A DNA stretch of 64,000 nucleotides, from contig QZLF01000003.1 in the NCBI GenBank assembly GCA_016771945.1, forward strand, positions 372,001-436,000. Reading direction: 5' to 3'. Shown one piece after another: positions 38,270 through 57,034 of the stretch (its first letter is position 1; each line of letters opens with the position of its first letter). The translations under genes were made by a program, and so were the position numbers. The notes under the pieces are model-generated. The model did no database searches. It was not told the origin of the DNA and worked only from the letters and a program-made list of their open reading frames with translations. Origin of the DNA: Candidatus Leucobacter sulfamidivorax (GTDB taxonomy: Bacteria > Actinomycetota > Actinomycetes > Actinomycetales > Microbacteriaceae).

Positions 38270-38278
38270 CGTCGTCCC

Positions 38279-40563: not shown

Positions 40564-40579
40564 AACCATACGTTTGGTT
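40564..40579. promoter_or_regulatory. Operator-like inverted repeat, thiolase-DUF35 operon
   Basis: AACCATACGTTTGGTT: perfect AACCA/TGGTT arms around a 6-base centre. One member of the recurring AACCAA...TTGGTT family in the island; it lies in the leader of the thiolase-like operon. A TAAATT -10-like box precedes it on the minus strand. Confidence 0.6.
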
Positions 40580-40685
40580 AATTTACAAGTGCGACTTCTC
40601 CCCCGGTACGGTCGCCCGGTCGAGGATCCGCCTCTCCTGCACCATTGCGAAAGGTGGCGATTGCGTTCGTCCCGTCGGAAGCGGC

Positions 40686-42728
40686 TCAGCGCCCCACCCC
40701 GTCGAGCACCCGCCTGATCTTCGGAGGGATCGCCTCCTCAGATCCGGTCGCGAGCGAGAAGCCGATGGGGTCGGAGTCCCCGACCAGCCGCAGTCCCTCG
40801 CCCAGCCACTCGTCGGACTGAGCCGCGGCGTAACGGACCGGACCGCCGAGCCAGCGCGGGAAGGCGAAACCCTCGGTGAAGGCCAGATCGACATCGCTCG
40901 CACGATTCGCGATCCCGCTGTCGACGAGACCCGCGGCCGCGACCAGCATGGCGCAGATGATGCGCTGCTGGATCTCCCCGCGGGAGATCGCGCGAGGGCT
41001 GATCCCCTTGGCCTCGCGCGCCCGGTCGATGATGAGAGCCACCTTCGGGTCCTCCGCGCCCCGGGGCGCCTCATCCGAGTAGAGGTACCAGCCGGCGCCG
41101 GTCTTCTTTCCCAGCCGGCCCTGCTCGCACAGGGTGTCCGCAATGGTCGCATAGCGCTGCTCGGGGTTCCGCGTCGCGGCCAGCCGCTTGCGTCGAGCCC
41201 AGGCGATGTCGAGTCCGGACATGTCGCCCACCGCGAAGGGGCCGACCGGCAATCCCAGCGCGCGCATCGCGTCGTCGACCTGGCGCGGCGATGCCCCGTC
41301 CTCGATCAGGTACTCCGCCTGCATGCGATAGTCGGAGTAGACGCGGTTGGCCACGAAGCCGTCGGCGACCCCGGCGAGAATCGGCGTCTTGCGCAGCGTC
41401 TTCGCGATCGCCGCCATCGCTCCGATGGTCTCGTCGCTCGTCTGCTCGGCCCGCACGACCTCGACCAGAGGGTTGCGGTTCGCCGGGTTGAAGAAGTGCA
41501 GCCCGACGAAGCGGGTGCGGTCCTCGAGCGCCTCGGCCATCTCGTTCAGATCGAGGTAGGAGGTGTTCGTCGCGAGCACGGTATCGGCGGAGACGACCGG
41601 TTCGAGATCTCGCAGGAGCTGCTGCTTCACCGCCATGTCCTCGAACACCGCGTCGATCACCAGGTCGACATCGGCGAACGCGGCGAGATCCGAGACTCGG
41701 CTGAGCTCGCCCCACTTCCGCGCGGTCGCACTCGCGGTCTCCAGCCGCCGGCCGGCGTTCTCGAGCACCTCAGCGTTCACCTCGTAGAGCACGACCTCCA
41801 GGCCCGCGCCGAGCAGAGCCTCGGCGATTCCCGACCCCATCGTCCCGGCACCGGCGACGCCGACCCGTCGTATCGGGAGCTTCGGCTTCGCGACGGCGAG
41901 ATCCTTCGCGGCGGCCCGGGCGGCGAAGAACAGGTAGCGCAGGTTGCGGGCCTCGGGTGCCACGCGCAGCTCGTCGAACACCAGGCGCTCCTGCTTCACC
42001 GTCTCGGGTCCGGGCTTCCCGACCCCCGCCAGCACGAAGTCGATCGCCCGCAGCACATTCGGACGCGTCTTCGGGGAACTGCGGTATTTCTCTACCACGG
42101 CGTCGAGCGCGGCCTGGTCCGTGTCGGGCTGGTGCTCCATGAGCACGATGCGGCGTCGCACGGCGTTCTTCGCCCGTGCGACGGCGGTCGCCATCAGGTT
42201 CTCCTGTTCGACCACCTCGTCGACGAGGCCGAGCTCGAGGGCCTGCCGCGCCCCGACGGGCTTCGCCGACGCGATGATGTCGATCGCGGCAGCGGTGCCG
42301 ATGAGCCGCGGGAGCCGCACCGTACCGCCGGCGCCCGGCATGAAGCCGAGGCTGACCTCCGGCAGGCCCAGCTTGGAGTCCGTAGTCGCGATCCGCTCGT
42401 CGCAGGCGAGGGCGAACTCGAGGCCACCGCCGAGCGTGAGCCCATTGAGCGCCGCCACGATCGGCACCTCGAGCGATTCCATCACCTCGATCACCTCGGT
42501 CAGCAGAGGATGCTGCACCGGGCCGTCGAACTCCTTGATGTCCGACCCGGAGTAGAAGTGCGCCTGGGCGCTGTGGACCACGATCGCGGTGAGACCCGGT
42601 TTCTCCGCGAGTCCGGTGAATGCGTCGAAGAGCGCGGTGCGCAGCGCCGTGTTGCCCGTGCTCACCGGCGGGTTGTCGATGGTGACGACCGCGAGATCGC
42701 CCTCGTGCGTCACGGAGACCAGGCTCAT
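40686..42728 (-). CDS. Bifunctional enoyl-CoA hydratase / 3-hydroxyacyl-CoA dehydrogenase (FadB/FadJ-like)
   Basis: Multifunctional beta-oxidation protein of 680 residues. Crotonase domain at 1-190 with SAQAHFYSGSDIKEFDG, ALNGLTLGGGLEFALACDE and the catalytic Glu in LGLPEVSLGFMPGAGGT. Dehydrogenase domain from about 290: Rossmann RRVGVAGAGTMGSGIAEAL, the catalytic His in VGLHFFNPANRNPLVEVV near 425, and the two C-terminal helical domains. It converts enoyl-CoA to 3-ketoacyl-CoA. It is a single-gene unit, divergent from the TesB-like gene with an operator-like site between. Confidence 0.92.
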   Translation of the reverse strand: MSLVSVTHEGDLAVVTIDNPPVSTGNTALRTALFDAFTGLAEKPGLTAIVVHSAQAHFYSGSDIKEFDGPVQHPLLTEVIEVMESLEVPIVAALNGLTLGGGLEFALACDERIATTDSKLGLPEVSLGFMPGAGGTVRLPRLIGTAAAIDIIASAKPVGARQALELGLVDEVVEQENLMATAVARAKNAVRRRIVLMEHQPDTDQAALDAVVEKYRSSPKTRPNVLRAIDFVLAGVGKPGPETVKQERLVFDELRVAPEARNLRYLFFAARAAAKDLAVAKPKLPIRRVGVAGAGTMGSGIAEALLGAGLEVVLYEVNAEVLENAGRRLETASATARKWGELSRVSDLAAFADVDLVIDAVFEDMAVKQQLLRDLEPVVSADTVLATNTSYLDLNEMAEALEDRTRFVGLHFFNPANRNPLVEVVRAEQTSDETIGAMAAIAKTLRKTPILAGVADGFVANRVYSDYRMQAEYLIEDGASPRQVDDAMRALGLPVGPFAVGDMSGLDIAWARRKRLAATRNPEQRYATIADTLCEQGRLGKKTGAGWYLYSDEAPRGAEDPKVALIIDRAREAKGISPRAISRGEIQQRIICAMLVAAAGLVDSGIANRASDVDLAFTEGFAFPRWLGGPVRYAAAQSDEWLGEGLRLVGDSDPIGFSLATGSEEAIPPKIRRVLDGVGR

Positions 42729-42774
42729 GTGCTACCCCTTCGTTCATTCCGCCGAGTGCGGACGCATCCACGTT

Positions 42775-42798
42775 ACCAAACAATCATTCGATTGGTAT
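42775..42798. promoter_or_regulatory. Operator-like inverted repeat between FadB-like and TesB-like genes
   Basis: 24-base site with perfect outer arms TACCAA/TTGGTA enclosing ACAATCATTCGA. Shares the core ACCAAACAATCATT with the site at 57014. It serves a divergent pair; TATATG overlaps its right end and could be the -10 of the rightward gene. Confidence 0.65.
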
Positions 42799-42855
42799 AT
42801 GGTGAAGATACCGAATTCGTGTTCCGACCGTCGCCGGGGGAGAATCTCACCTGTC

Positions 42856-43644
42856 ATGCACTTCTTCGATCACCGGCAACTCGTTTCAGCCCCTGGGGGC
42901 TTCACCGGGATCTGCACGGCCGGCGCCGGCGTGCGCATCTTCGGCGGCCACAGCCTCTCCCACTCCTTGAACGTCGCTTCTCTCGCGATCGATCACTCGC
43001 GTACGGTGAGCTCCCTCCATGCCGTCTTCCTCTCCCCCGGGAACGCCTCCGAGCCCGTCCTGTTCTCCGCCGAGCCCCTGAAACGCGGCAGAGCGCTCGA
43101 CACGGTGCGCGTCGGCGCCGTGCAGGACGAGCGGCAGATCCTCGAGTCCCTGGTGACGTTCCACGATGGCGAGGAGAGCATCGAGTTCCAGGCGGTGGCA
43201 CCCGAGACGATCCCTGCCGAGGCGCTGAGCGACGACCCGCTGCATCGCCACTCGGGTTCCGACGCGCGCTCACCCTTCCATTGCCGGACCGTCCCCTCCG
43301 ATCCTCGAGAGCCACAGGTGCGGACCTGGATCAGGCTCCGCGAGGCGGCCGGCGACGCGCCATCGCTCCTGCACCAGGCGGCCCTCACCTACGCGCTCGA
43401 CTTCCTCATCACGAAGGCCGCGCACAATCCGATCGACGAGGAGGGGGTGCGGCACCTGGGCGCCTCGCTCGATCACGCGATGTGGTTCCACCGCCGCTTC
43501 CGGGTGGATGAGTGGCTGCTCGTCGAGGCCACCTCGAACACCTTTGCAGGAAGCCGATCCCTCTCGCACGCCTCGGTCTACGATCACGCGGGTCGCCTGG
43601 TCTCGAGCGCTTCCCAGGAAGCGCTGTTGCGCCGGACGATCTGA
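42856..43644 (+). CDS. Acyl-CoA thioesterase II-like (TesB family)
   Basis: Double-hotdog thioesterase of 262 residues, which would release CoA from acyl-CoA. N-terminal hotdog SHSLNVASLAIDHSRTVSSLHAVFL and the C-terminal half SLDHAMWFHRRFRVDEWLLVEATSNTF with the final DHAGRLVSSASQEALLR are characteristic of TesB. Start ATG at 42856 is 12 bases after GGGGGAG; the frame remains open upstream, but the family begins here. It may free the CoA pool when the pathway stalls. Convergent with the biotin carboxylase gene; a short AAGCGCCC hairpin (43699-43717) covers both ends. Confidence 0.82.
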   Translation: MHFFDHRQLVSAPGGFTGICTAGAGVRIFGGHSLSHSLNVASLAIDHSRTVSSLHAVFLSPGNASEPVLFSAEPLKRGRALDTVRVGAVQDERQILESLVTFHDGEESIEFQAVAPETIPAEALSDDPLHRHSGSDARSPFHCRTVPSDPREPQVRTWIRLREAAGDAPSLLHQAALTYALDFLITKAAHNPIDEEGVRHLGASLDHAMWFHRRFRVDEWLLVEATSNTFAGSRSLSHASVYDHAGRLVSSASQEALLRRTI

Positions 43645-43715
43645 ACGCCGCCCGCAGATCGGCGTGAGCCCTATGACCCGAGAGGCGGAGAAGCTTCCAA
43701 GCGCCCTCGGGGCGC

Positions 43716-45071
43716 TTACGCCCGATAGCCCGACAGGAACGAGTCCTCGAGCCACTTCGTGGTGATCGGCTCGGCCCCGAAGGTCCCATCCCTCAGTATC
43801 GCGAGCTGAAGGTCGATGGTCGTCGATACACCCGCGACACGGCTTCTCTCGAGCACGCGCACCATCTTCGCGATGGCCTCCTCACGAGTCGGCGCATGCG
43901 CGATGAACTTGGCGATGAGCGAGTCGTAGTACGGAGGCACCGTCGCACCGTCGTGCATATACGTGTCGATGCGGACGCCGTCCCCCTGGGGAACCGTCCA
44001 TTCGGTGATCACGCCGGGGCTGGGCAGGAAACCCGCCGACACGTTCTCGGCGTTGATGCGGCATTCGATGGCGTGCCCCTCGATGACGACGTCCTCCTGA
44101 GAGAAGGAGATCCGCTCTCCGCGGGCGATGCGGATCTGCTCGCGAATGATGTCGACGCCGGTCACCATCTCGCTCACCGGGTGCTCGACCTGCACCCGGG
44201 CGTTGACCTCGAGGAAGACGAACGTCTCCCGCTGCACGTCGACCAGGAATTCGCAGGTGGCCGCGCCGACGTATTTCAGCGCCTGCGCGAGCCGCACCGC
44301 GGCATCGCGGATCCGCCCGACCAGCTCTTCGGAGAGCCCAACGCTCGGGGCCTCCTCGATGATCTTCTGGTACCTGCGCTGCGCCGAGCAGTCACGCTCC
44401 CCCAGGTGGCGGACATCGCCGTGGCTGTCGGCGAGCAGCTGCACCTCGATATGGCGTGCCTTTTCGATGTAGGGCTCGAGGTAGACGGTGCCGTCGCCGA
44501 AGGCGCGCTCCGCCTCCGTGCTGGAGCGGATGAACCCCTCGCGCAGATCCTCGGGTCCGCGGACGATCGTCATCCCGCGCCCGCCGCCGCCGGCGGAGGC
44601 CTTGAGCAACAGCGGGTACGCGTCGAGCTTCTCGGCCGCCTCGATCGCCTCGTCGAGCGAGGAGAGGCCGGCCGTGCCCCGCCCGGTCGGGATGCCCACC
44701 GACTCGGCCATGTTGCGGGCGAGCAGCTTGTCGCCCGACTCGCGCATGATCTCGGCCGAGGGGCCGATGAAGGTGATGCCGTTCTGCTCGCAGGCCTCGA
44801 CCAGAGTCGGACGCTCGGAGAGGAAGCCGTAGCCGGGGTGCAACGCGTCGCAGTTCGCGTTGAGCGCGGCCTGGACGACGCGCTCCGCGGAGAGGTAGCT
44901 CTCCGACGCCGACGCCGGGCCGATGACCACGACCTCATCGGCGAGGCGAGCGGCCAGCGAATCCGTATCCGCCGCCGAGACCACGAGCACGCTCTCGATG
45001 CCCTCGTCGAAGCACGCGCGGATGATGCGAACGGCGATCTCCCCGCGGTTCGCGATGAGGATCCTCTTCAT
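43716..45071 (-). CDS. Biotin carboxylase (AccC-like)
   Basis: ATP-dependent biotin carboxylase, 451 residues, that carboxylates biotin on a carrier protein with bicarbonate. Marks: MKRILIANRGEIAVRII start, HPGYGFLSERP, glycine-rich ATP loop KASAGGGGRGM, ARHIEVQLLAD, GERDCSAQRRYQKIIEEAP and EVNARVQVEHPVSEMVTG. It lies four bases after the carrier gene, so the two are cotranscribed. No carboxyltransferase gene is adjacent; the PYC/OADA-like protein at 54600 in the same regulon is the candidate partner. The frame extends upstream of the chosen ATG but overlaps the carrier gene. Confidence 0.92.
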   Translation of the reverse strand: MKRILIANRGEIAVRIIRACFDEGIESVLVVSAADTDSLAARLADEVVVIGPASASESYLSAERVVQAALNANCDALHPGYGFLSERPTLVEACEQNGITFIGPSAEIMRESGDKLLARNMAESVGIPTGRGTAGLSSLDEAIEAAEKLDAYPLLLKASAGGGGRGMTIVRGPEDLREGFIRSSTEAERAFGDGTVYLEPYIEKARHIEVQLLADSHGDVRHLGERDCSAQRRYQKIIEEAPSVGLSEELVGRIRDAAVRLAQALKYVGAATCEFLVDVQRETFVFLEVNARVQVEHPVSEMVTGVDIIREQIRIARGERISFSQEDVVIEGHAIECRINAENVSAGFLPSPGVITEWTVPQGDGVRIDTYMHDGATVPPYYDSLIAKFIAHAPTREEAIAKMVRVLERSRVAGVSTTIDLQLAILRDGTFGAEPITTKWLEDSFLSGYRA

Positions 45072-45075
45072 GCGG

Positions 45076-45615
45076 TTACACCGCATCCGGACGGATCGTG
45101 ACCAGGATGTCGCCGAACTGCACGGCTCCGCCGTTCTCGACATTGATGCCGGTCACGGTTCCGGAGACCCCCGCGGGAACGTTGTTCATGAGCTTCATGA
45201 TCTCGACGATGCCGACGGTGTCATCGGCGTCGACGTGGTCGCCCACCTGCACGAAAGGCGGAGCACTCGGCTCGGGCGCGCGCCAGAAGGTGCCCACGCT
45301 GGGAGCGGTGACGGTGGCATCGCCGGCTTCGCCTGCGGCAGCGGGCGCAGTCGGGGCGGCGGCGTGAGCGGGTGCTGGAGGGCTCGCCGGAGCGGGCGCG
45401 ACAGGGACGACGGCTGCAGGTGCCGCAGGGACGACGGCTGCGGGCGCAGCGGAGGCGGGCGCAGCGGGCCCTGCGAGCAGATCTCCGCCGCCGAGGCGCG
45501 CGCCATTGCGAGCGACGGCGATCCGCACATCGCCGATGACCACTACCGCCTCGTCCCAGTCAGACCGCTGGAGCGCATCGACGATGCTGTTGATGTCCTG
45601 CGATGAAATGGTCAT
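45076..45615 (-). CDS. Biotin carboxyl carrier protein (AccB-like)
   Basis: 179 residues: an N-terminal helical part (MTISSQDINSIVDALQRSDWDEAVVVIGDVRIAVARN), an alanine/proline-rich swinging linker (about 65-100), and a C-terminal biotinyl domain with the acceptor lysine in VEIMKLMNNVPAG near residue 141. The ATG at 45615 follows GAGGAG. Upstream in-frame GTG would add residues that cover the operator region and is rejected. A TTGACC-17-TATTCT promoter (45679-45707) and an operator-like repeat at the transcription start (45655-45672) lie upstream. It precedes biotin carboxylase. Confidence 0.9.
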   Translation of the reverse strand: MTISSQDINSIVDALQRSDWDEAVVVIGDVRIAVARNGARLGGGDLLAGPAAPASAAPAAVVPAAPAAVVPVAPAPASPPAPAHAAAPTAPAAAGEAGDATVTAPSVGTFWRAPEPSAPPFVQVGDHVDADDTVGIVEIMKLMNNVPAGVSGTVTGINVENGGAVQFGDILVTIRPDAV

Positions 45616-45654
45616 TCCAAGAGCTCCTCGTGAGTAACGTCGCCGTCGAACGTC

Positions 45655-45672
45655 ACCAACCAATCGGTTGGC
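45655..45672. promoter_or_regulatory. Operator-like inverted repeat at the accB-type transcription start
   Basis: ACCAACCAATCGGTTGGC: perfect CCAACC/GGTTGG arms around AATC. It sits directly on the predicted transcription start of the biotin carrier operon, as a repressor site would. Confidence 0.7.
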
Positions 45673-45678
45673 AGTTTT

Positions 45679-45707
45679 AGAATAGACGCTCCCCTTCCGC
45701 AGGTCAA
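45679..45707 (-). promoter_or_regulatory. Promoter of the biotin carrier/carboxylase operon
   Basis: On the minus strand TTGACC (45707-45702) and TATTCT (45684-45679) with a 17-base spacer. Transcription would begin near 45672, inside the adjoining operator-like repeat. Confidence 0.7.
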
Positions 45708-45756
45708 ACTACGGTTCCGGGAGGACGGGCCGACGAAGGCGGGCCGGCAAGTAGTC

Positions 45757-45780
45757 TTCCAAATGTTTGGTTGTTATAGT
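45757..45780 (+). promoter_or_regulatory. Promoter with embedded operator-like repeat for the CoA-transferase genes
   Basis: CCAAATGTTTGG (5-bp arms CCAAA/TTTGG, 45759-45770), TTGGTTG continuing to 45773, and a TATAGT -10 box at 45775-45780. The repeat lies between the -10 and where the -35 should be; the -35 itself is weak. Confidence 0.6.
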
Positions 45781-45875
45781 GATGGCAGAGCGATTCGTCG
45801 CAACGGCACTCTCTCAAACTACCCGCGGCCTGCGGGATCCGGGAGTGCGCTCGAGAAACCGAAGAGGAGCCGTCG

Positions 45876-46550
45876 ATGATCGATAAGCAAGTGGCAAGTA
45901 TCGCGGCGGCCGTCGCCGACATCGGCGACGGTGCGACGATCATGGTCAGCGGTTTCGGCCCTCCCGGCCAGCCGGTCGAGCTGATCGAGGGCCTCCTCGA
46001 ATCGGGGGTTCGCGATCTCACCATCATCAACAACAACGCGGGAGCCGGAGGCGACGCCATCGGCGAGCTCTTCGCCGCCAAGCGCGTGAGCAGGGTGATC
46101 TGCTCGTTCCCGAAGGCGATCGGCTCGACCATCTTCGACGAGCTCTACCTCGCAGGGGAGATCGAGCTCGACCTCGTGCCCCAGGGCACGCTCGCCGAGC
46201 GGATCCGCGCCGCCGGCGCCGGCATCGCCGGCTTCTACACGCGGACCGGCTACGGCACCGAGCTCACCGAGGGGCGAGAGGTCAAGGAGTTCGACGGGGC
46301 CATGTACGTGCTCGAGGAGGCGCTGCACGCGGACTTCGCCCTCGTGCGCGCGCACCAGGCCGATCCCCATGGGAACCTGGTGTTCCGCAAGACCGCCCGC
46401 AACTTCGGACCCATCATGTGCACCGCCGCGAGGACCACGATCGTCGAGGCGAGTGAGATCGTGCCGCTCGGCGGCCTCGATCCGGAGCGCATCGTCACCC
46501 CCGGCATCTACGTGGATCGCGTCGTCGCGGTGCCCGGAAGCGCCAACTGA
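45876..46550 (+). CDS. 3-oxoacid CoA-transferase, subunit A
   Basis: 224 residues. Family I CoA-transferase alpha subunit: MVSGFGPPGQPVELIEGLLESGVRDLTIINNNAG near the N-terminus, and FPKAIGS, FYTRTGYGTELTEGREVKEFDG and NLVFRKTARNFG in the middle. It transfers CoA between succinyl-CoA or acetyl-CoA and a carboxylic acid, here probably either activating the substrate or recovering CoA. It opens the rightward CoA-transferase operon, under its own operator-bearing promoter. Confidence 0.92.
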   Translation: MIDKQVASIAAAVADIGDGATIMVSGFGPPGQPVELIEGLLESGVRDLTIINNNAGAGGDAIGELFAAKRVSRVICSFPKAIGSTIFDELYLAGEIELDLVPQGTLAERIRAAGAGIAGFYTRTGYGTELTEGREVKEFDGAMYVLEEALHADFALVRAHQADPHGNLVFRKTARNFGPIMCTAARTTIVEASEIVPLGGLDPERIVTPGIYVDRVVAVPGSAN

Positions 46551-46568
46551 AGGAGCGTGTGGAGAATC

Positions 46569-47225
46569 ATGAGGCTGAGCAGAGCTGAGATCGCGGCCCG
46601 GGTCGCACAGGACATCCCGGACGGCTCCTACGCGAATCTGGGCATCGGCGTTCCGACGCTGGTTGCGGACTACCTGCCCGAGGGGCGGCAGATCATATTG
46701 CACACCGAGAACGGCCTGCTGGGCATGGGACCGGCACCGGCTGAGGGCGAGATCGATGAGGATCTCATCAACGCCGGAAAGATCTACGTCACCGAGATGC
46801 CCGGCGCGGCCTACTTCCACCATGCGGACTCCTTCGCCATGATGCGCGGTGGCCACCTCGACTTCTGCGTTCTCGGAGCCTTCCAGGTCTCGGCGCGTGG
46901 CGACCTCGCGAACTGGCGCACCAACTCCCCCTCCGCCATTCCCGGAGTCGGCGGTGCCATGGATCTCGCCGTCGGCGCCAAGCACGTCTACGTGGTGATG
47001 GAGCTCTTCACCAAGACCGGCGAATGCAAGCTCGTGGCCGACTGCGACTACCCGCTCACCGGCAAGGAGTGCGTCGAGCGCATCTACACCGATGTGGCGC
47101 TCTTCGAGATCCGCCCCGATGGTGTCCATGTGCTCGAGGTCTTCGACGACGCAGGTCTCGAGGAGGCGAAGCAGCAGATCGGCTTCGCGCTGATCGACTC
47201 GACGGTCGAGCTCGCCTCGCGGTAG
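46569..47225 (+). CDS. 3-oxoacid CoA-transferase, subunit B
   Basis: 218 residues. Contains the catalytic glutamate in LHTENGLLGMGPAP near residue 50, which forms the glutamyl-CoA thioester, and the GIGVPTLVADYLP and GGHLDFCVLGAFQV motifs. GTG at 46557 is an alternative start but would lie directly against AAGGAGC; ATG at 46569 has GGAG at a normal distance. It is 18 bases after subunit A. The product is specific enough for the family but not for the substrate. Confidence 0.92.
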   Translation: MRLSRAEIAARVAQDIPDGSYANLGIGVPTLVADYLPEGRQIILHTENGLLGMGPAPAEGEIDEDLINAGKIYVTEMPGAAYFHHADSFAMMRGGHLDFCVLGAFQVSARGDLANWRTNSPSAIPGVGGAMDLAVGAKHVYVVMELFTKTGECKLVADCDYPLTGKECVERIYTDVALFEIRPDGVHVLEVFDDAGLEEAKQQIGFALIDSTVELASR

Positions 47226-47247
47226 GAGAGCTCCCTCCGAGGACGAT

Positions 47248-47278: not shown

Positions 47279-47291
47279 AACGTCGTGACGA

Positions 47292-48863: not shown

Positions 48864-48865
48864 CG

Positions 48866-49837: not shown

Positions 49838-49847
49838 GGCGCTTCTC

Positions 49848-50624
49848 CTAGGCGAGGCGGTTTTCGATGAGGAAGTCGGCCAGTCGCTCAGCGGCATCGC
49901 CTTCGTCGACGATCTTCACTCCGGCTTGGCGAGGCGGCTTCTCGCTGATCTTCAGCATGATGGATCGCGGAACCGCGGCATTGTCGACCGCGATGCCCAG
50001 GTCGGGGAGACTCAGCGTCTCGAAGGGCTTCTTCTTCGCCGCCATGATGCCCTTGAAGCTCGGGAATCGGCCGTCCGGGAGCGCCTCCGTGATGGAGATC
50101 ACGGCCGGCAGGGAGGCGGAGACCTGCTGCACTCCCCCGTCGACCGGGCGCCTGCCGCTGACCGACGCCTCCGAGATCTCCACCGCGCTCAGGCCCGAGA
50201 GCAGGACGACCCCGAGGTGTTCGGCGAGCGCCGGGGGCACCATGCCGCTCATGCCGTCCGTGGCGGCGTTGCCCGCGATGATCATGTCGAAGCCCTCCTT
50301 CCGCACCGCGGCCGCGAGCACCTCCGCGGTGAGCATGATGTCGGCGCCGCGCAGCTCTTCGTCCACGATCTGAACCGCACGATCGGCCCCCATGGCGAGG
50401 GCCTTGCGCACCGTGGTCGACGCGCTCTCCGGAGCGATCGAGAGCGCGACGACTTCGACGTCCCCATGCGCGTCCGCGTACGAGAGGGCGACCTCGAGGC
50501 TCCGTTCGCTGATCTCATCGAGCACCGGGTCGCTCGCTCCCCGATCCGCGAGACCGGTTTCGAGGTCGAGCTTCCTGTCACCGTAGGTGTCGGGCACTTC
50601 CTTCACCAGGACGATGATCTTCAT
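49848..50624 (-). CDS. etfB: Electron transfer flavoprotein, beta subunit
   Basis: 258 residues. Starts [20 protein letters not shown], contains the AMP-site region [20 protein letters not shown] and a [15 protein letters not shown] stretch, and ends with [14 protein letters not shown]. Forms a heterodimer with EtfA. GAGGAGAGG is just before the ATG at 50624. A strong promoter and operator-like site lie at 50749-50799. First gene of the etfB-etfA-cytochrome b operon. Confidence 0.95.
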
Positions 50625-50748
50625 ATTGCCTCTCCTCGATGCCATGGAGTCGTGATCGGGCCCGATCTCTCGGGCCGAACGGCCGACCGTAGGCATTCCG
50701 GGACCGCATGCGGCACGAGCGTCCGTCTCGAACGCACATGATCCCTAA

Positions 50749-50768
50749 ATCAAACAATCGGTTGGTAG
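50749..50768. promoter_or_regulatory. Operator-like repeat at the etfB transcription start
   Basis: ATCAAACAATCGGTTGGTAG: CAAAC-AATC-GGTTG core, same core AATC as the biotin-carrier site. It covers the predicted start of the etf transcript. Confidence 0.65.
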
Positions 50769-50770
50769 TG

Positions 50771-50799
50771 ATTATAGGATCTGCATCCCGCCAGGTCAA
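50771..50799 (-). promoter_or_regulatory. Strong promoter of etfBA-cytochrome b
   Basis: TTGACC (50799-50794), 17-base spacer, consensus TATAAT (50776-50771) on the minus strand. Start would fall near 50764 inside the operator-like repeat. Confidence 0.8.
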
Positions 50800-50841
50800 A
50801 CCGGAATCGACGCGGCTCGGAAACCTCGGGCCGGCCCGCTT

Positions 50842-52044
50842 CTACGCGAGCCGCTCCACGACCATCGCCATCCCCATCCCACCGGCGATGCACATCGAGA
50901 CCACGCCCAGCTGCTCATCGCGATGCTTCAGGGAGTTGATCAGCGTCGTCGTCATGCGCGCGCCGGTCATGCCGAAGGGGTGGCCCAGGGCGATGGCCCC
51001 GCCATTGACGTTGAGCTTCTCGAACGGAATGTCCAATTGCCGCGCGGACGGGATCACCTGCGCGGCGAAGGCCTCGTTGATCTCGAACTGGTCGATGTCC
51101 CGCACGGTCATCTTCGCGAGCGACAGAGCGCGACGAGTGGCCTCGACGGGTCCGAGCCCCATGATCTCGGGCGAGAGCCCCGACACCCCGGTCGACACGA
51201 CACGGGCGAGCGGGGTGAGGCCGAGTTGCTCGGCCTTCGAATCGCGCATCACGACCAGTGCGGCCGCACCGTCGTTCAGCGCGCAGGCATTGCCCGCGGT
51301 GATCCTCCCGTCCTCCCGGAAGACCGGAGAAAGGCCGGCGAGGCCCTCCAGCGTCGTCGTCGGGCGGGGACCGTCGTCCGAGCTCACCGTTCGACCGTCG
51401 GGAAGCCGCACCGGGGTCACGTCGATGTCCCAGAAGCCCGCCTCCGCCGCGGCCTTGGCATTCATCTGGCTGCGCAGCGCGAATTCGTCCATCTCGGATC
51501 GGCTGATGCCCGTCAGCGTGGCGACGTTCTCGGCGGTCGTTCCCATATCCATGTAGACGTCCGGCAGATGATCCGTCTCGCGAGGATCCTGCCATCCCAA
51601 CAGCGCATCCTGCTCCCGACCGAGGCTTTCGAACAGCGGGTTGCGCGCCTCGGGGCCATCCGGCACTCCGGGCATCAGCCGCGACATCATGTCCACGCCG
51701 CCAGAGACGCAGACCTCGGCCTCCCCGGACCGGATCGCGTGCACGGCCATGCGGGTGGTCTGCACACTCGAGGCGCAGAAGCGGTTGACCGTCGCGCCCG
51801 GCACACCGTCGAGGCCGAGCAGCACCGAGACCACTCGGGCGATGTTGAACCCCTGCTCGCCCCCCGGCAGCGCCGTGCCGATGAGCATGTCATCGACGGT
51901 CGCCGGATCGAGCTCGGGAACCTTCTCCAGCGCCCGCCGCACCATCTGCGCGGTGAGGTCATCCGGCCGCATCCCCACCAGCGAGCCCTTGAAGGCCCGT
52001 CCGATGGGAGAGCGGGCGGTTGAGACGATGACGGCTTCGGCCAT
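50842..52044 (-). CDS. Acetyl-CoA C-acyltransferase (thiolase)
   Basis: Degradative thiolase of 400 residues. Nucleophilic cysteine in VNRFCASSVQTTRMAVHAI near residue 90, and the C-terminal NVNGGAIALGHPFGMTGARM (catalytic His) and SMCIAGGMGMAMVVERL (second Cys) are all present, unlike the two thiolase-like proteins at 38-40 kb. It releases acetyl-CoA or propionyl-CoA from 3-ketoacyl-CoA. Single-gene unit with its own operator-like site, divergent from an enoyl-CoA hydratase gene. Confidence 0.94.
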   Translation of the reverse strand: MAEAVIVSTARSPIGRAFKGSLVGMRPDDLTAQMVRRALEKVPELDPATVDDMLIGTALPGGEQGFNIARVVSVLLGLDGVPGATVNRFCASSVQTTRMAVHAIRSGEAEVCVSGGVDMMSRLMPGVPDGPEARNPLFESLGREQDALLGWQDPRETDHLPDVYMDMGTTAENVATLTGISRSEMDEFALRSQMNAKAAAEAGFWDIDVTPVRLPDGRTVSSDDGPRPTTTLEGLAGLSPVFREDGRITAGNACALNDGAAALVVMRDSKAEQLGLTPLARVVSTGVSGLSPEIMGLGPVEATRRALSLAKMTVRDIDQFEINEAFAAQVIPSARQLDIPFEKLNVNGGAIALGHPFGMTGARMTTTLINSLKHRDEQLGVVSMCIAGGMGMAMVVERLA

Positions 52045-52063
52045 GATTGCGGGATCCTTATTT

Positions 52064-52111
52064 CAACCGAACGATTGGTTTTATTCTGTCACCTTCGCCA
52101 CCATCGGGCAA
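52064..52111 (-). promoter_or_regulatory. Operator-like repeat and promoter of the thiolase gene
   Basis: CAACCGAACGATTGGTTT (52064-52081) lies directly downstream of an AGAATA -10-like box (52087-52082); TTGCCC at 52111-52106 is an 18-base-spaced -35 candidate. The operator-like site covers the expected start. Confidence 0.5.
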
Positions 52112-52135
52112 CCCGCGCGCAGGCGCGATTTCGGT

Positions 52136-52166
52136 TACAATAAACAAACCAATCATTCGGTTGATT
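52136..52166 (+). promoter_or_regulatory. -10 box and operator-like repeat of the enoyl-CoA hydratase gene
   Basis: TACAAT at 52136-52141, then AAACCAATCATTCGGTTGAT (about 52146-52165) with arms AACC/GGTT around AATCATTC. The repeat covers the predicted transcription start; the -35 is not obvious. Confidence 0.55.
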
Positions 52167-52213
52167 AATTTACGTCCTCGTCCGCAGCACAGACCACAGT
52201 AAGGATCACCCGC

Positions 52214-52999
52214 ATGCCCTCGGAACGCACTGCAGAATTCGGATCGTTCACCCTCGCCGTCGACAGCGGGGTCGGGCTCGTCACCTTCGAACGCCCTCCG
52301 GTGAACAGCTTCCGCGTCTCCACCTACGAGGAGCTGCTCGCACTGACCGAGCACCTGGAGAGCAGTCGCGACGTGCGCGCCGTCGTGCTCGCGGCCGGCG
52401 AGCAGTCGCGCTGCTGGTGCGGCGGGGCCGACGTCAACGACTTCGCGGACATGGACAGCGAGAGCCGAGCCGAACGCTACGAGTTCGTCAATGCGGTGAT
52501 CCCGCGCTTCGCGAGGCTCGAACGACCCGTCATCGCGGCCATCTCCGGTCATACCATCGGGATCGGGATCATGCTCGCAGCCGTCTGCGACATCAGAATC
52601 GCCGCCGACACCGCTCAGTTCGCGACGCCGGAGATCAACTACGGCCTCATCGCCGGCACCTCGCGGATCCTCAACTTCCTGGGCGTGCCGGAGGGGCTGG
52701 TTCGCGAGCTCGCCTATACGGGGCGGCGCGCGAGCGCACAGGAGCTCGGGGAGGCCGGATTCCTCGGACACGTCGTCCCGAAGGAGGAGGTGCTGACATC
52801 CGCCCTCGCTCTCGCAACGGATATCGCCGCGAAGGGGATCGATATCCTCGCCACCCGCAAGCGCGTCTTCGTCGAGCACGAGCAGATGGGCTGGTTCGAG
52901 GCCTACCGGCATGCGCAGAAGGCATCCTCCGCCCTCGTCGGCTCCGATGACGCGAAGGCCGGAGTCGCCGCATTCCTCAGCGGCGAGTCCCGTCCCTGA
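52214..52999 (+). CDS. Enoyl-CoA hydratase/isomerase-family protein
   Basis: Crotonase-fold protein of 261 residues. Oxyanion-hole stretches AGEQSRCWCGGADVNDFAD and AISGHTIGIGIMLAAVCDI are present. The second catalytic glutamate is retained in FATPEINYGLIAGTSRIL; the first (usual GGCELA) is replaced by GIGIMLA, so it may act as an isomerase or with a single acid-base residue. Single-gene rightward unit with operator-like upstream site, divergent from the thiolase gene. Confidence 0.85.
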   Translation: MPSERTAEFGSFTLAVDSGVGLVTFERPPVNSFRVSTYEELLALTEHLESSRDVRAVVLAAGEQSRCWCGGADVNDFADMDSESRAERYEFVNAVIPRFARLERPVIAAISGHTIGIGIMLAAVCDIRIAADTAQFATPEINYGLIAGTSRILNFLGVPEGLVRELAYTGRRASAQELGEAGFLGHVVPKEEVLTSALALATDIAAKGIDILATRKRVFVEHEQMGWFEAYRHAQKASSALVGSDDAKAGVAAFLSGESRP

Positions 53000-53049
53000 G
53001 ACGCCCGACGCCGAAGCGCTCGAAGGCCGTGGAAGTACGGCGACCGGAG

Positions 53050-53526
53050 TCAGGCGGCAGGAAGCTCGACGAACTCGAGCGTGATCCCGTCGTGATTCAC
53101 CGCGTAGCACGCCCTGCCGCCCGCCCGAGGCCCGACCGTGATCTCCGTCGGCACTCCCCCGGCGCTCCAGCCGTAAGGGCGCGCGCGATCCAGGACATCC
53201 TCGATGCTCACGACGTAGAAGGCGAGATGAGCCGAGCCGACGTCGCAGCTTCTCCCCCCGAGCCGACCGCGATCATCCGGTGCGCGATAGCTCAGCAGTT
53301 CGACGGCGATGCCGTGCCCCTGGACGAAGCACGCGTCTATCTGCGCTCCGGCCACTCCGGTGACCGCGCTGCTGAACTCGGCGTCCAGAGAGACCTCGGC
53401 TCCCGCCTCGAAACCGAGCACCTCGATGAAGAAATCCCTCGTGCGTTCGACATCGCTCACCGTCAACCCGAAATGCCCGCACCCGATCACCGACGTCACG
53501 ACCGCCCCACGCCCTTCCTCACTCAC
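53050..53526 (-). CDS. VOC-superfamily protein (glyoxalase/epimerase-like)
   Basis: About 158 residues of paired beta-alpha-beta-beta-beta modules: GCGHFGLTVSDVERTRDFFIEVLGFEAG with the first metal His, a middle AHLAFYVVSIEDVLDRARPYG and a C-terminal Glu in GITLEFVELPAA. Members include methylmalonyl-CoA epimerase, ring-cleavage dioxygenases and glyoxalases; an epimerase acting on a carboxylated acyl-CoA would fit the biotin carboxylase in the same regulon, but that is a guess. GTG at 53526 overlaps the upstream stop by GTGA; a later in-frame GTG at 53499 is possible. Confidence 0.75.
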   Translation of the reverse strand: MSEEGRGAVVTSVIGCGHFGLTVSDVERTRDFFIEVLGFEAGAEVSLDAEFSSAVTGVAGAQIDACFVQGHGIAVELLSYRAPDDRGRLGGRSCDVGSAHLAFYVVSIEDVLDRARPYGWSAGGVPTEITVGPRAGGRACYAVNHDGITLEFVELPAA

Positions 53527-54590
53527 TCGCCTGCGCGACCATGCGCGGCGAGCCTCACCAGGGACTTCCCGACGTTGGCGCCCCGCAGCATGCCGATGAA
53601 TCCCGCGGGAGACGCTTCGATCCCCTCGATGACCGTCTCGTCGAAGACCAATCGGCCATCGGCGAGCCATTGCGAGACCTCCCGGGTGAACTCGTCGAAC
53701 TCGTCGAAGTACATGCGCGCGAGGAAGCCCTGCAGCGTCAGCCCCTTCTCGATGGCGGAGAAGAGGTTCTTGATCCCCGGCCGCTCCTCTCCCAGCAGGT
53801 TGTAGCCGGCGATCTGGCCGCAGAGCGCCACCCGCCCGCCCTCTCGCAGGTGCAAGAGCGCGGCATCCAGGTGATCCCCGCCCACGCCGTCGAAATAGAG
53901 GTCTATTCCGTCGGGCGCGGCCCGTCGCAGGCTGTCGAGCACCGGAGCGGAGCGGTAGTTGAAGGCCGCGTCGACTCCGAGATCATCGATCAGGTGCCCG
54001 ACCTTCTCATCGGAGCCGGCGCTCGCGACGACAGAGGCCCCCTGCAGCTTCGCCATCTGCACGGCGAGCGAGCCGACGGCTCCGGCCGCCGCCGAGACGA
54101 ACACCGTCTCCCCCGGCGCCAGCCGCCCGACGCGGAACAATCCCGCCCAGGCCGTCAGCCCGCTCGGACCGAGCACCCCGAGGTGGTGGCGGGAGTCGAA
54201 TCCGCCCCCGACCTCGACCCGACGCGGTGAATACCATCCCCGATCCGAGACGGCGACGACGGCGTGCTCGCGCCAGCCGGCAAAGTGGTGCACACGGTCG
54301 CCGACGGAGAAATCCCCGTGCGCCGACGCGAGCACTTCGCCGACCGCCCACCCGTCCAGCGCCTCGCCCAGTGCGTATGGCGCGAAGTACGACGATTCGC
54401 CCGCGGTCATCCTGAGCCTCATCGACGGGTCGAGGGAGAACCACTCGTTTCTCACGAGGATCGACCCCCGAGTCAGCTCGGGAAGCGGGATCTCCCTCAC
54501 CTCGAAGTCCGAGACCCTCGGCTCGCCATCGGGATACCTCTTGAGGGCCACGGCCCTCGTCCCGGAGGGGAGCCCGATTCGATCCGCCAC
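53523..54590 (-). CDS. MDR-family NADP-dependent oxidoreductase (quinone oxidoreductase/enoyl reductase-like)
   Basis: Zinc-free medium-chain reductase of 355 residues. It resembles the CurA/leukotriene-B4-dehydrogenase branch: NEWFSLDPSMRLRM near the N-terminus, GPSGLTAWAGLF near 145, and the nucleotide motif SAAAGAVGSLAVQMAKLQGASVVASAGS near 170-195. The family reduces double bonds of alpha,beta-unsaturated carbonyls with NADPH. GTG start, ten bases after the TIM-barrel gene; ends by GTGA overlap with the VOC gene. Confidence 0.88.
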   Translation of the reverse strand: MADRIGLPSGTRAVALKRYPDGEPRVSDFEVREIPLPELTRGSILVRNEWFSLDPSMRLRMTAGESSYFAPYALGEALDGWAVGEVLASAHGDFSVGDRVHHFAGWREHAVVAVSDRGWYSPRRVEVGGGFDSRHHLGVLGPSGLTAWAGLFRVGRLAPGETVFVSAAAGAVGSLAVQMAKLQGASVVASAGSDEKVGHLIDDLGVDAAFNYRSAPVLDSLRRAAPDGIDLYFDGVGGDHLDAALLHLREGGRVALCGQIAGYNLLGEERPGIKNLFSAIEKGLTLQGFLARMYFDEFDEFTREVSQWLADGRLVFDETVIEGIEASPAGFIGMLRGANVGKSLVRLAAHGRAGE

Positions 54591-54599
54591 CGATCCGCC

Positions 54600-56066
54600 T
54601 CAGGCCTGCTTGGCCAGCGTCACACTGTACTCGGGAGTCGCCACCGAGAAGGAGGTCGCCCGGCTCCGCTCCGCGATGAGGTCGGTGACCGCATCCACGA
54701 TGGCATTCGCCGAACGGCGAGGATCCGTGCGGATCGGCCCCTTCGAGATCATGGCGTCGACCTCCTCATTGCTCATCATGTACCGCAGCAGGAACTCCTC
54801 GTCGGAGATGCCGGGCGAGAAATGGGAACGCAGCTCGGCGAGGCTCGGATCCGGTCGAGTCCAGGTCTCCAACGCCTTCGCGCGAGGGCTCGAGAGGATA
54901 CGGTCGAGGACCTCCTGATTCATCGTGCCGGCGACCGGGCCGTAGTGTCCCAGGACATAGTGGACGACCTCGTCGGGCACGATGCTGTAGGGGTCGCCGG
55001 TCACGATGTTGAGGACGGCCTGGATACCCACGAACTGGGAGAAGGGCGTGGCCATGATCGGCTCGCCGAGGTCGCGTCGCACCTGCGGGATCGCCGCCAG
55101 CACCTCTGGCAGCCGGTCGCCCATGCCGTGCCGTCCCAGCTGGTTGATCAACGTCCCGGTCATCCCGCCCGGAAGCTGGTGGTCGTAGATACGCGGATCG
55201 TATTCGGCGGGGACGCCGAGGAGGTGCCCGCCATCCTTCGCCACACGAGTGAGGATCTCGGCGACGGGGGCGAAGGTGCTCCGGTCCAGCGAGTGGGTGA
55301 AGCCCAGATACTCGACGATGTCCGCCATCATCTCGGTCGACGGGAGCGACGCGCCGTTCGCGAGAGGCCTGGATGCGGTGTGCAGGCGATTGAATCCGCT
55401 CTCCAACGCGATGATGTAGTTGTGCTGGGCAAGGCCGGTGGTGTTGTGGGCGTGCATCTCGAGCGGCGTCTGCCCGACGGCGTCGCGGATGGCCGGCAGC
55501 AGCGTACGCGCCCGCTCGGGCTTCAGCACTCCCGCCGCATCTTCGAAGTAGATCGACTCCACACCGTCCCAGGTCGCCATCTGCGAGGCGCGCTCGGCGA
55601 AGAAGGCGTCGTCGTGCACGCTCGTGTAGCCGTACATGATGGCCGGTACGGGCTGACCTCCCGCATCGCGCACGACGCCGACCATGTGCTTCATGATCTC
55701 CATGTCGTAGAGGCAGTCGTACAGCCAGAAGCTCGTGGCGCCGTGTTTGATGAGCGTCTGGATCCACAGATCGAGAACCACCTGAGGCGTGTGCGCGAAG
55801 CCGACCGCGCTGATCGTGCGCAGCCCCGACCGAAGCTCGTTGCCGGGAAGCCCCGCCACCAGGAAGTCGAGGGTGGCCCAGGGGTCGTCGAAGTACTCGC
55901 GGAGCTGCACGGTGAACATGCCCGCCCCGGTCAGGTCGATGGTCCGATAGCCGCCTTCGGCGAGGTACGGGAGCGTGTCGGCGGCCTCATAGGCGCGCAT
56001 GCGCATGCCCCAGAGGCTCTGCTGTCCGTCGCGAAGCGACTGCTCGACGAAATCGATATGGGTCAT
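54600..56066 (-). CDS. HMGL-like TIM-barrel protein of the PYC/OADA carboxyltransferase group, catalytic Lys replaced
   Basis: 488 residues resembling the carboxyltransferase domain of transcarboxylase 5S, oxaloacetate decarboxylase alpha and pyruvate carboxylase. Metal ligands are seen in VEQSLRDGQQSLWGMRM (Asp near 13) and MHAHNTTGLAQHN (two His near 205). The carbamylated metal-bridging lysine (family motif IKDMAG) reads YFEDAAG, Glu near residue 175, so a typical carboxyltransferase mechanism is doubtful. No biotinyl domain; a C-terminal conserved region (about 320-460) corresponds to the PYC_OADA domain. With AccC- and AccB-like proteins in the same regulon, a three-part carboxylase is possible. 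Confidence 0.82.
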   Translation of the reverse strand: MTHIDFVEQSLRDGQQSLWGMRMRAYEAADTLPYLAEGGYRTIDLTGAGMFTVQLREYFDDPWATLDFLVAGLPGNELRSGLRTISAVGFAHTPQVVLDLWIQTLIKHGATSFWLYDCLYDMEIMKHMVGVVRDAGGQPVPAIMYGYTSVHDDAFFAERASQMATWDGVESIYFEDAAGVLKPERARTLLPAIRDAVGQTPLEMHAHNTTGLAQHNYIIALESGFNRLHTASRPLANGASLPSTEMMADIVEYLGFTHSLDRSTFAPVAEILTRVAKDGGHLLGVPAEYDPRIYDHQLPGGMTGTLINQLGRHGMGDRLPEVLAAIPQVRRDLGEPIMATPFSQFVGIQAVLNIVTGDPYSIVPDEVVHYVLGHYGPVAGTMNQEVLDRILSSPRAKALETWTRPDPSLAELRSHFSPGISDEEFLLRYMMSNEEVDAMISKGPIRTDPRRSANAIVDAVTDLIAERSRATSFSVATPEYSVTLAKQA

Positions 56067-56127
56067 TGCCTAACTTTCTCAGAGATGAACGTTGTTCGAG
56101 GAGATCGGGGAGCTGAAAAACGGCGCA

Positions 56128-56976
56128 TCAGGCAGGCGCGAAGGCGAGCGGACGGATCGGCGAGCCGGTACCGCCGCCGATGCGCAGCGGCGAAGCGGCG
56201 AAGAAGAAGTCCCGTATCCCGTCTGCGGCGAGCTGCTCGAGCGAGAGCGACTCCATGATCGGGATGCCGTTCTCGACCAGCAGATGCACGTGCACCGAGA
56301 GCGCGGGAACCTGCAACTGGGGCTTGTGCTCGAAATTGACGGTATCGGCTCCGACCGCGCGTACGCCCCGCTCGGAGAGCCAGCGCGCACCGCTGAGCTT
56401 CACGCCGGGTATCCCGGCCTCGAGCCCGAGATACCGGTCGCTGTCCTCCCAGAACTGCATCCAGCCGGTGCGGAACACGACGATGTCGCCGGCCTTCGGC
56501 TCGGGCCTCCCGGAGAACCAGGCCTCCAGCTCCTCGGCGCCGAAGCCGTCCTCGTGGGTCATGACCCGATCGAAGATCTCCACTCCGTCGACCAGATGCC
56601 CGGGCCCGAAGAGCGGCGGAAGCTCCTCGACCGAGCCGACGGCGATGCCCGAGTGGGATTCCTGCTGCGCATCGACCTCCCGCCCGCCGAAGACGCATCC
56701 GTCCAGGGAGATGTGCCCCGGGGCGTCGACGTGGGTGCCGACATGCGCCCCCATGGTCAGCAGCTCCATCGAGGACGAGATCCCTCCGGGATAGGGATGC
56801 TCGCCGTGCTTCTTCACCAGGGTGTAGGAGAACGGCGGATGAGCCGCATGGTGGGTCATCCCATGCTCGAGCCTGACCGCGAGGTCGTACGCCCGGACGG
56901 AACCGGCCTCGGGCCAGGAGACCAGCCCGTCCCAGGAACCACCGCCCCAGTTGGTATCTCGTCCCGTCACCGTCAT
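56128..56976 (-). CDS. Cyclase-family metal hydrolase (kynurenine formamidase-like)
   Basis: 282 residues with the canonical metal motif MGAHVGTHVDAPGHI near residues 76-90 (His, His, Asp, His), a catalytic-region KAGDIVVFRTGW and VRAVGADTVNFEH near 200. It hydrolyses an amide, lactone or cyclic ketone; the substrate is not known. First gene of the leftward operon containing the TIM-barrel, MDR and VOC genes. An operator-like repeat lies between it and the divergent TetR gene. Confidence 0.86.
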   Translation of the reverse strand: MTVTGRDTNWGGGSWDGLVSWPEAGSVRAYDLAVRLEHGMTHHAAHPPFSYTLVKKHGEHPYPGGISSSMELLTMGAHVGTHVDAPGHISLDGCVFGGREVDAQQESHSGIAVGSVEELPPLFGPGHLVDGVEIFDRVMTHEDGFGAEELEAWFSGRPEPKAGDIVVFRTGWMQFWEDSDRYLGLEAGIPGVKLSGARWLSERGVRAVGADTVNFEHKPQLQVPALSVHVHLLVENGIPIMESLSLEQLAADGIRDFFFAASPLRIGGGTGSPIRPLAFAPA

Positions 56977-57013
56977 ATGCTCGTCTCCCTCGTCGCGATC
57001 TATGCACCCAGAT

Positions 57014-57034
57014 TACCAAACAATCATTTGGTTG
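57014..57034. promoter_or_regulatory. Operator-like inverted repeat between the cyclase operon and tetR
   Basis: TACCAAACAATCATTTGGTTG; arms ACCAAA/TTTGGT around CAATCA. It stands in the divergent promoter region beside the TetR gene and is the best example of the island's repeat family, consistent with TetR autoregulation. Confidence 0.7.

What the first reader, a model, noticed from the sequence alone, without database searches (positions are those of the whole stretch)
40564..57034. A family of AACCAA...TTGGTT inverted repeats at every promoter of the 34.7-57.7 kb island defines a probable TetR regulon
Eight related sites occur at 40564, 42775, 45655, 45759, 50749, 52064, 52146 and 57014, each upstream of one or two of the ten transcription units between 34.7 and 57.7 kb. 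In at least three units (45.7, 50.8, 52.1 kb) the site covers the predicted transcription start just after a good -10 box. One TetR gene lies beside the 57014 site. Spacing between arms is not constant (2 to 12 bases), so more than one mode of binding or more than one factor is possible. Seen: the repeats and promoters. Inferred: that the TetR protein binds them and that they form one regulon. An island-wide shared operator groups genes that are otherwise scattered and of unclear function into one pathway.
Basis: partly seen in the sequence, partly recalled or inferred. Interest (0 to 1): 0.75.

Follow-up and report, generated by a model that had tools for sequence, protein, structure and literature searches.

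The report
TetR operator family of terpenoid-type island
A short DNA address, repeated at the promoters of a large bacterial catabolic gene island, very probably binds one TetR repressor; the same pairing of repressor and address occurs in related islands, among them Rhodococcus plasmid clusters that look made for eating the eucalyptus terpenoid 1,8-cineole.

Summary
In detail: all eight sites exist (within 2 bases). Best described as a 16-bp palindrome, AACCRAWY|RWTYGGTT, it has 14 places in the 3.84-Mb genome at up to 2 mismatches; 12 lie in 28 kb spanning the island, the other two inside ORFs elsewhere. Three strong sites (64750, 68802, 68915) beyond the window were not used to design the pattern. 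Among 54 genus genomes only three carry a close TetR match and clustered sites. In four promoters aligned with genome G062, operators are 74/76 identical, flanks 283/384. TetR homologues on three Rhodococcus plasmids and in 4 of 6 further loci drawn blind sit among the motif. The odd spacings come from half-sites overlapping in 4-bp steps. Most likely the TetR protein represses all these operons and is released by a pathway CoA thioester (inferred). Two Rhodococcus relatives hold P450cin-type P450s, so the island is probably a lower pathway for terpenoid-like keto-acids. In passing: its biotin carboxyltransferase has Glu where relatives have Lys, 7/7 against 0/10. A new regulon of a known kind.

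The parts
40564..40579 (.). operator, 16-bp form (AACCATACGTTTGGTT), upstream of the thiolase/OB/ECH/cyclase/SDR operon (-)
   Evidence: 16/16 conserved in the G062 orthologous promoter
42774..42797 (.). operator with stacked half-sites (gap 8/4/0), between FadB (-) and thioesterase (+)
   Evidence: 23/24 conserved in G062
45654..45673 (.). operator with stacked half-sites, 5 bp after the -10 (TATTCT) of the BCCP-BC operon (-)
45757..45772 (.). operator, 16-bp form, upstream of the CoA-transferase A/B operon (+), before a TATAGT -10 (by eye)
50748..50767 (.). operator with stacked half-sites, 3 bp after the TATAAT of the ETF-beta operon (-)
   Evidence: 19/20 conserved in G062
52065..52080 (.). 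operator, perfect 16-mer, upstream of thiolase (-); no counterpart seen in G062
52147..52162 (.). operator, perfect 16-mer, after the TACAAT (by eye) upstream of ECH (+)
   Evidence: 16/16 conserved in G062
57014..57033 (.). operator, 20-bp form, between the cyclase-carboxyltransferase operon (-) and TetR (+)
   Evidence: matching site between TetR and cyc2 in G067
59914..59929 (.). weak operator (2 mismatches), upstream of the acyl-CoA dehydrogenase at 58754-59893 (-)
57111..57749 (+). TetR-family repressor (ORF from GTG 57075; ATG 57111 with a GGAGGA before it looks the better start)
   Evidence: TetR_N E 1.5e-16; sequence read
34726..40551 (-). operon: two SCPx-type thiolases, ChsH2-like OB protein, ECH, cyclase, SDR
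40686..42728 (-). FadB-type ECH/3-hydroxyacyl-CoA dehydrogenase
42589..43644 (+). TesB-like acyl-CoA thioesterase (start not fixed; longest ORF given)
43716..45615 (-). biotin carboxylase and BCCP (biotin site MKLMN), BCCP start read as ATG 45615
45876..47225 (+). 3-oxoacid CoA-transferase subunits A and B
   Evidence: TIGR02429 over its cut-off for A
47292..50696 (-). ETF-beta, ETF-alpha and a cytochrome b561-type protein
50842..52044 (-). acetyl-CoA C-acyltransferase (thiolase)
52214..52999 (+). enoyl-CoA hydratase
53050..56976 (-). operon: cyclase, 5S/OadA-type carboxyltransferase (Glu for carbamyl-Lys), LTB4-type reductase, glyoxalase-fold protein
57861..63955 (-). two acyl-CoA dehydrogenases and a sugar-type ABC importer that continues past the window end

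Best explanation
The repeats are operators of one regulon. The TetR-family protein at 57.1-57.7 kb binds, as a dimer, a 16-bp palindrome AACCRAWY|RWTYGGTT (8-bp half-site WACCRAWY) that at several promoters follows the -10 box directly, and keeps RNA polymerase off the operons of a 37-kb acyl-CoA catabolic island (34.7 to about 71.6 kb in extended coordinates), its own gene included. At some promoters (42.8, 45.65, 50.75, 57.0 kb) half-sites overlap in 4-bp steps, which gives 20- or 24-bp forms that may hold two registers or two dimers. An intermediate, most likely a CoA thioester, releases the repressor when the substrate is taken up. Shown: sites, positions, conservation, co-occurrence with this TetR clade. 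Inferred: binding, repression, ligand.
For: 12 of 14 genome-wide 16-mer places lie in the 28-kb span; the other 2 are inside ORFs elsewhere. Strong sites at 64750, 68802 and 68915, outside the window, were not used in designing the pattern; they lie at the start of an ABC-importer binding-protein gene and between a divergent aminotransferase and SDR. Of 54 genus genomes, a TetR match at E up to 1e-25 is only in G067 (59%) and G062 (56%) besides the own genome; at up to 1 mismatch the own genome has 8 places, G062 4 and G067 2, all in island contigs, while the other 51 genomes have 21 places in 14 genomes, at most 2 each (reversed control 5 places in 54). Operators conserved 74/76 against 283/384 in flanks in the four own/G062 promoters that I aligned. 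In the rearranged G067 island there are 7 sites, 6 outside called ORFs and the seventh between the TetR and cyc2 alignments. Rhodococcus plasmid islands with TetR homologues at 45.5, 43.6 and 35.5% have 7, 5 and 5 merged sites, of which 5, 3 and 5 lie outside ORFs. Blind test: six further TetR relatives among 394 class genomes; four loci have sites, 17 in all against a permuted mean of 0.86, 0 of 500 permutations reaching 17. GVLKGSLY invariant in the six island TetRs.
Against: No binding or expression data. In the blind test 2 of 6 loci (L100, L103) have no site at up to 2 mismatches; L100's two best places are weak, one of them just before the likely ATG of its TetR gene, and L103 has nothing. 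L101 and L102 come from one genus and are alike, so not independent, and L104 has one site only. The G062 TetR gene has no site at up to 2 mismatches nearby. The 52065 site has no counterpart in G062. Of 60 other TetR loci, 6 have a place within 400 bp at up to 2 mismatches; 5 of these are from genomes with 27-45% G+C in the fetched stretch. Permuted half-sites reached the observed totals in 1, 0, 6, 3, 0 and 4 of 500 for the six islands. The Lux/SDR2 divergent promoter near 65.7 kb has no zero-gap site at up to 2 mismatches, only a 12-bp gap -4 place at 65710.
Confidence: 0.86

Rival explanations
1. The operators belong to another regulator (for example the PucR-type protein at about 71.6-72.4 kb, or a distant global regulator), and the TetR gene is only one more target.
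For: A PucR-type HTH gene lies at the far end of the island; an autoregulatory site alone does not name the binder. I did not annotate every gene of every relative.
Against: tblastn of the PucR protein gave no match at E up to 1e-3 in any of the 15 fetched stretches of related islands, while TetR matched in each island. LuxR-type genes were seen in the R. pyridinivorans and R. opacus islands only. The motif follows the TetR clade in a blind draw. Palindrome length and symmetry fit a TetR dimer.
Confidence: 0.08
2. Two factors share the sites: a 16-bp zero-gap form for one and a 20/24-bp form for another.
For: Both forms exist, and the form at a promoter is kept between the own genome and G062. 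At up to 1 mismatch the gap-4 form too is mostly in the island, 3 of 4 places.
Against: Gaps go in 4-bp steps with overlapping half-sites, and each long form contains a zero-gap 16-mer with 1-2 mismatches, which one protein in two registers explains.
Confidence: 0.05
3. The repeats are chance or a composition effect of AT-rich promoters in a GC-rich genome.
For: Promoters here are AT-rich, and permuted half-site patterns of like composition occasionally score as high (1 of 500 for the own island).
Against: Genome-wide specificity, conservation against flanks and the blind test.
Confidence: 0.01

Closest known systems
PfmR (TTHB023) of Thermus thermophilus, TetR repressor of phenylacetate/fatty-acid genes
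   Same: TetR repressor with several target promoters in acyl-CoA metabolism, own promoter included; 16-bp palindromic operator TACCGACCGNTNGGTN (Agari et al. as quoted in PMC7022988, passages read), close to WACCRAWYRWTYGGTW. 3vpr_A matches the TetR here with E 1.6e-13; that 3vpr is PfmR is recalled.
   Different: Only distant sequence similarity; different genes; the in-vitro consensus in PMC7022988 differs from the Agari form.
KstR2 (cholesterol-ring catabolism repressor released by HIP-CoA)
   Same: Actinobacterial TetR repressor of an acyl-CoA degradation regulon; 4w97/4w1u match with E about 3e-12. The CoA-thioester ligand is recalled.
   Different: Another operator (AnCAAGnnCTTGnT, recalled) and other genes.
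1,8-cineole catabolic operon of Rhodococcus (R. jostii TMP1, Jakubovska and Meskys 2016; seen only as a cited reference and table row in PMC11279926)
   Same: The R. pyridinivorans P23 plasmid island has P450cin (E 7e-262) and a diketocamphane-monooxygenase-like protein, and the R. opacus one a P450 92% identical to it, together with orthologues of this island's TetR, BC, carboxyltransferase, cyclases, CoA-transferase and FadB.
   Different: The own genome has no P450cin orthologue (best match 29% identity); the substrate of the own island is unknown.
AtuR, repressor of acyclic terpene utilisation in Pseudomonas
   Same: TetR-type repressor of a terpenoid catabolic cluster with a biotin carboxylase (recalled; search listing only).
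   Different: No sequence comparison made; inverted repeats and enzymes differ as recalled.

Membership tests
TetR family of repressors | TetR_N HTH domain over the Pfam cut-off | tested here: met
   PF00440 E 1.5e-16, 60.3 bits against 24; PF17932 C-terminal domain E 1.1e-14
TetR family of repressors | palindromic operators at own and target promoters | tested here: met
TetR family of repressors | binds DNA and is released by a small ligand | not testable with these tools
   needs EMSA/footprint with candidate ligands
named TetR equivalogues of NCBIfam (FadR, KstR, ScbR and others listed) | NCBIfam equivalog model over its cut-off | tested here: not met
   22 models matched, none over its cut-off: ScbR 55.2 bits of 150, FadR 49.7 of 200, KstR 32.0 of 280; no PfmR or KstR2 model was listed
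1,8-cineole catabolic island | P450cin orthologue | tested here: not met
   own genome best 29% identity; met in the R. pyridinivorans and R. opacus relatives
pyruvate carboxylase / oxaloacetate decarboxylase / transcarboxylase 5S | metal-site Asp, His, His and carbamylated Lys (roles recalled) | tested here: not met
   Asp, both His and the pocket Arg kept, Lys replaced by Glu in 7 of 7 island proteins, Lys in 10 of 10 other relatives, all 10 from the own genus

The most novel reading that the evidence does not exclude
The regulon defines an actinobacterial system for methyl-ketone intermediates of terpenoid breakdown, in which BCCP, biotin carboxylase and a carboxyltransferase with a Glu-for-carbamyl-Lys metal site carboxylate a methyl ketone to a 3-oxo acid; the co-regulated 3-oxoacid CoA-transferase and thiolase then split it, and a CoA thioester from this sequence is the signal for the TetR repressor. 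1,8-Cineole yields just such a ketone, 5,5-dimethyl-4-(3'-oxobutyl)-dihydrofuranone (PMC4097962, passages).
Probability: 0.3. Interest if true: 0.75.

Novelty: new member of a known kind. Interest (0 to 1): 0.52.

Why it matters
It turns some 30 scattered acyl-CoA genes into one testable regulon, gives the operator letter by letter, and ties it to a repressor clade that also sits in Rhodococcus islands with P450cin. The motif can be used to find and delimit such islands in other actinobacteria. It points to an uncharacterised biotin-dependent carboxylase in the lower pathway, a part of cineole breakdown that the review passages I read do not describe.

Tried and rejected
A 20-bp gap-4 model as the main operator: less specific, 26 places at up to 2 mismatches genome-wide, 7 of them in the island span, control 3. 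TetR relatives from the public genome scan (41 loci, at most 49% identity over short stretches): none is a close orthologue; they served only as part of the 60-locus count. The 19 TetR loci L005-L023 from 40 relatives: at up to 2 mismatches only L014 has a place near its TetR. The island DNA against plasmids: 9 records, none covering much of it. The own LLM gene as a diketocamphane monooxygenase: only a partial match, E 3.9e-25 over residues 43-161. Literature on a biotin-dependent methyl-ketone carboxylase in terpene breakdown: 0 papers held all five terms, and 0 papers met the search on the 5S carboxylated lysine, so nothing is claimed about print beyond those searches. No title or abstract start in the listings names a regulator of cineole catabolism; these papers were not read for it beyond the passages. 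Naming the organism: the 16S gene was read but not compared with named records; no name is given. Structure prediction was not run.
Full report
WHAT WAS CHECKED. The window is C3:372001-436000 of a 3.84-Mb genome in 11 contigs. Coding strands were settled by codon-position G+C and families by Pfam: the genes at 34.7-57.0 kb are thiolases, FadB, enoyl-CoA hydratases, CoA-transferase, ETF, biotin carboxylase, BCCP, a 5S/OadA-type carboxyltransferase, cyclases, reductases and a thioesterase, with one TetR gene at 57.1-57.7 kb.

THE MOTIF. A 20-mer with 3 mismatches allowed hit only the window. A 16-mer, AACCRAWYRWTYGGTT, with up to 2 mismatches has 14 places in the whole genome: 12 between C3:412,564 and 440,930, one in C1 and one at C3:155,178; the reversed pattern has none. 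The two outliers lie inside ORFs. Three strong sites, at window positions 64750, 68802 and 68915 when the numbering is carried past the window end, were found by this scan and were not used to design it. The first overlaps the first codons of the longest ORF of an ABC-importer binding protein (a later start is likely); the other two lie between a divergent aminotransferase and SDR. A weak ninth window site is at 59914. With half-sites WACCRAWY and gaps from -6 to 12, the gaps cluster at -4, 0, 4 and 8. The gap-4 20-mer is less specific: 26 places at up to 2 mismatches, 7 in the island span, control 3; at up to 1 mismatch 3 of 4 are in the span. In the 37.3-kb own island the 16-mer has 12 merged hits, 10 outside called ORFs, where 8% of bases are intergenic; 500 permuted half-sites average 0.49, and 1 reached 12. 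That permutation set holds near-copies of the real half-site. In a leave-one-out test of a position weight matrix all 12 sites outscored every position of window 1-34000.

PROMOTERS. Two of the four sigma-70-like hits in 40.4-57.3 kb (11/12 at 50.8 kb, the best, and 9/12 at 45.7 kb; shuffles give 1.2 hits on average) end 3 and 5 bp before the operator. At 52147 and other sites the operator follows a -10-like stretch, by eye. At 45757 and 68915 it precedes the -10-like stretch. Both placements could block RNA polymerase.

COMPARISON WITHIN THE GENUS. Of 54 genus genomes (the own one included) three have a TetR match at E up to 1e-25: the own one, G067 (59%) and G062 (56%). At up to 1 mismatch the 16-mer has 8 places in the own genome, 4 in G062 and 2 in G067, all in island contigs; the other 51 genomes have 21 places in 14 genomes, at most 2 each; the reversed control has 5 places in the 54. 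The G067 island holds orthologues of most of the genes tested, in another order; its 7 merged sites lie before transcription units, 6 outside called ORFs and one between the TetR and cyc2 alignments. In the four promoters that I aligned between own and G062 (ETF-beta, FadB, thiolase, ECH), the operators are identical at 74 of 76 bases and the flanks at 283 of 384. Not every site is kept: the thiolase-side site at 52065 has no counterpart in G062, and the G062 TetR promoter has only a weak one.

BEYOND THE GENUS. TetR homologues on plasmids of Rhodococcus opacus G13 (45.5%), R. pyridinivorans P23 (43.6%) and R. qingshengii VT6 (35.5%) were the three best of 445 plasmid records with a match. Their neighbourhoods have 7, 5 and 5 merged 16-mer hits at up to 2 mismatches, of which 5, 3 and 5 are outside ORFs, including places upstream of each TetR gene. 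Over the six islands, permuted half-sites reached the observed total in 1 (own), 0 (G067), 6 (G062), 3 (R. opacus), 0 (R. pyridinivorans) and 4 (R. qingshengii) of 500. As a blind test, six more TetR relatives at E up to 1e-45 were drawn from 394 genomes of the class with a profile of the six TetRs and their surroundings fetched, up to 20 kb each. They have 5, 0, 5, 6, 0 and 1 hits, 17 in all against a permuted mean of 0.86 and a maximum of 13. Two of the six come from one genus and have alike islands. The two misses count against full generality; in one of them (L100) a weak place lies just before the likely ATG of its TetR gene. The stretch GVLKGSLY, in the recognition helix by analogy with other TetR proteins (recalled), is invariant in the six island TetRs. 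Of 60 other TetR loci none of those whose helix my script could read has it, and 6 have a 16-mer place nearby, 5 of them in stretches of 27-45% G+C.

WHAT THE ISLAND MAY DO. The R. pyridinivorans relative is very probably a 1,8-cineole island: its P450 matches P450cin with E 7e-262, and its flavin monooxygenase matches 3,6-diketocamphane monooxygenase with E 7e-101. The R. opacus P450 is 92% identical to it. Review passages describe the cineole route in Rhodococcus as far as a lactone with a 3-oxobutyl (methyl ketone) chain (PMC4097962). The genes shared by the R. pyridinivorans island and the own one are the TetR, both cyclases, BC, carboxyltransferase, CoA-transferase, FadB, ECH, thiolase, two acyl-CoA dehydrogenases and a CoA ligase, and a BCCP. 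The own genome has no P450cin orthologue, so its substrate is not cineole by that route. I infer a lower pathway for terpenoid-like keto-acids or lactones. The carboxyltransferase keeps Asp, both His and the pocket Arg of the pyruvate-carboxylase type but has Glu in place of the carbamylated Lys in 7 of 7 island proteins, while 10 of 10 other relatives examined, all from the own genus, have Lys. The columns rest on alignment; their catalytic roles are recalled. A biotin transporter gene (BioY) in the R. pyridinivorans island fits a need for biotin.

MECHANISM AND LIMITS. I commit to repression by the TetR protein at these sites, own promoter included, with release by a pathway CoA thioester. 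Shown by sequence: sites, places, conservation, co-occurrence. Inferred: binding, repression, ligand, substrate. TetR is the only regulator gene found in all six islands compared; the PucR-type gene at the island's far end has no match at E up to 1e-3 in the 15 fetched stretches of relatives, but not every gene of every relative was annotated. The operator resembles that given for PfmR of Thermus (TACCGACCGNTNGGTN, quoted in PMC7022988, passages), but no NCBIfam equivalog model reached its cut-off, so this TetR is filed only in the TetR family.

Noticed in passing
window 54600-56066 (-): Carboxyltransferase of the 5S/OadA type with Glu in place of the carbamylated Lys; 7 of 7 island proteins from several genera, Lys in 10 of 10 other relatives of the own genus. 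Possibly a carboxylase for a methyl ketone.
   Followed up: partly
window 28872-32705 (-): 1277-aa protein with weak matches to the MTES_1575 endonuclease-like and DUF4011 domains, both under the curated cut-offs; may be a defence-type protein.
   Followed up: no
L001:5525-6760 and L077:3353-7131: Sugar-type ABC importers (Peripla_BP_4, BPD_transp_2) carry the operator in an otherwise acyl-CoA island; G067 has two such importers. Their substrate may be the terpenoid or a glycoside of it.
   Followed up: partly
L088 (R. qingshengii VT6 plasmid pLP1) 7450-30449: An island with mycofactocin-coupled SDRs, MaoC and OB/thiolase proteins beside a 35%-identical TetR with the same motif; a different pathway seems to use the same repressor-operator pair.
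   Followed up: partly
extended window coordinate 64806: A second, degenerate operator copy (AAACATACGGTTGGTA) next to the likely -35 of the importer operon (by eye); the G067 importer promoter has its site at that relative position.
   Followed up: partly
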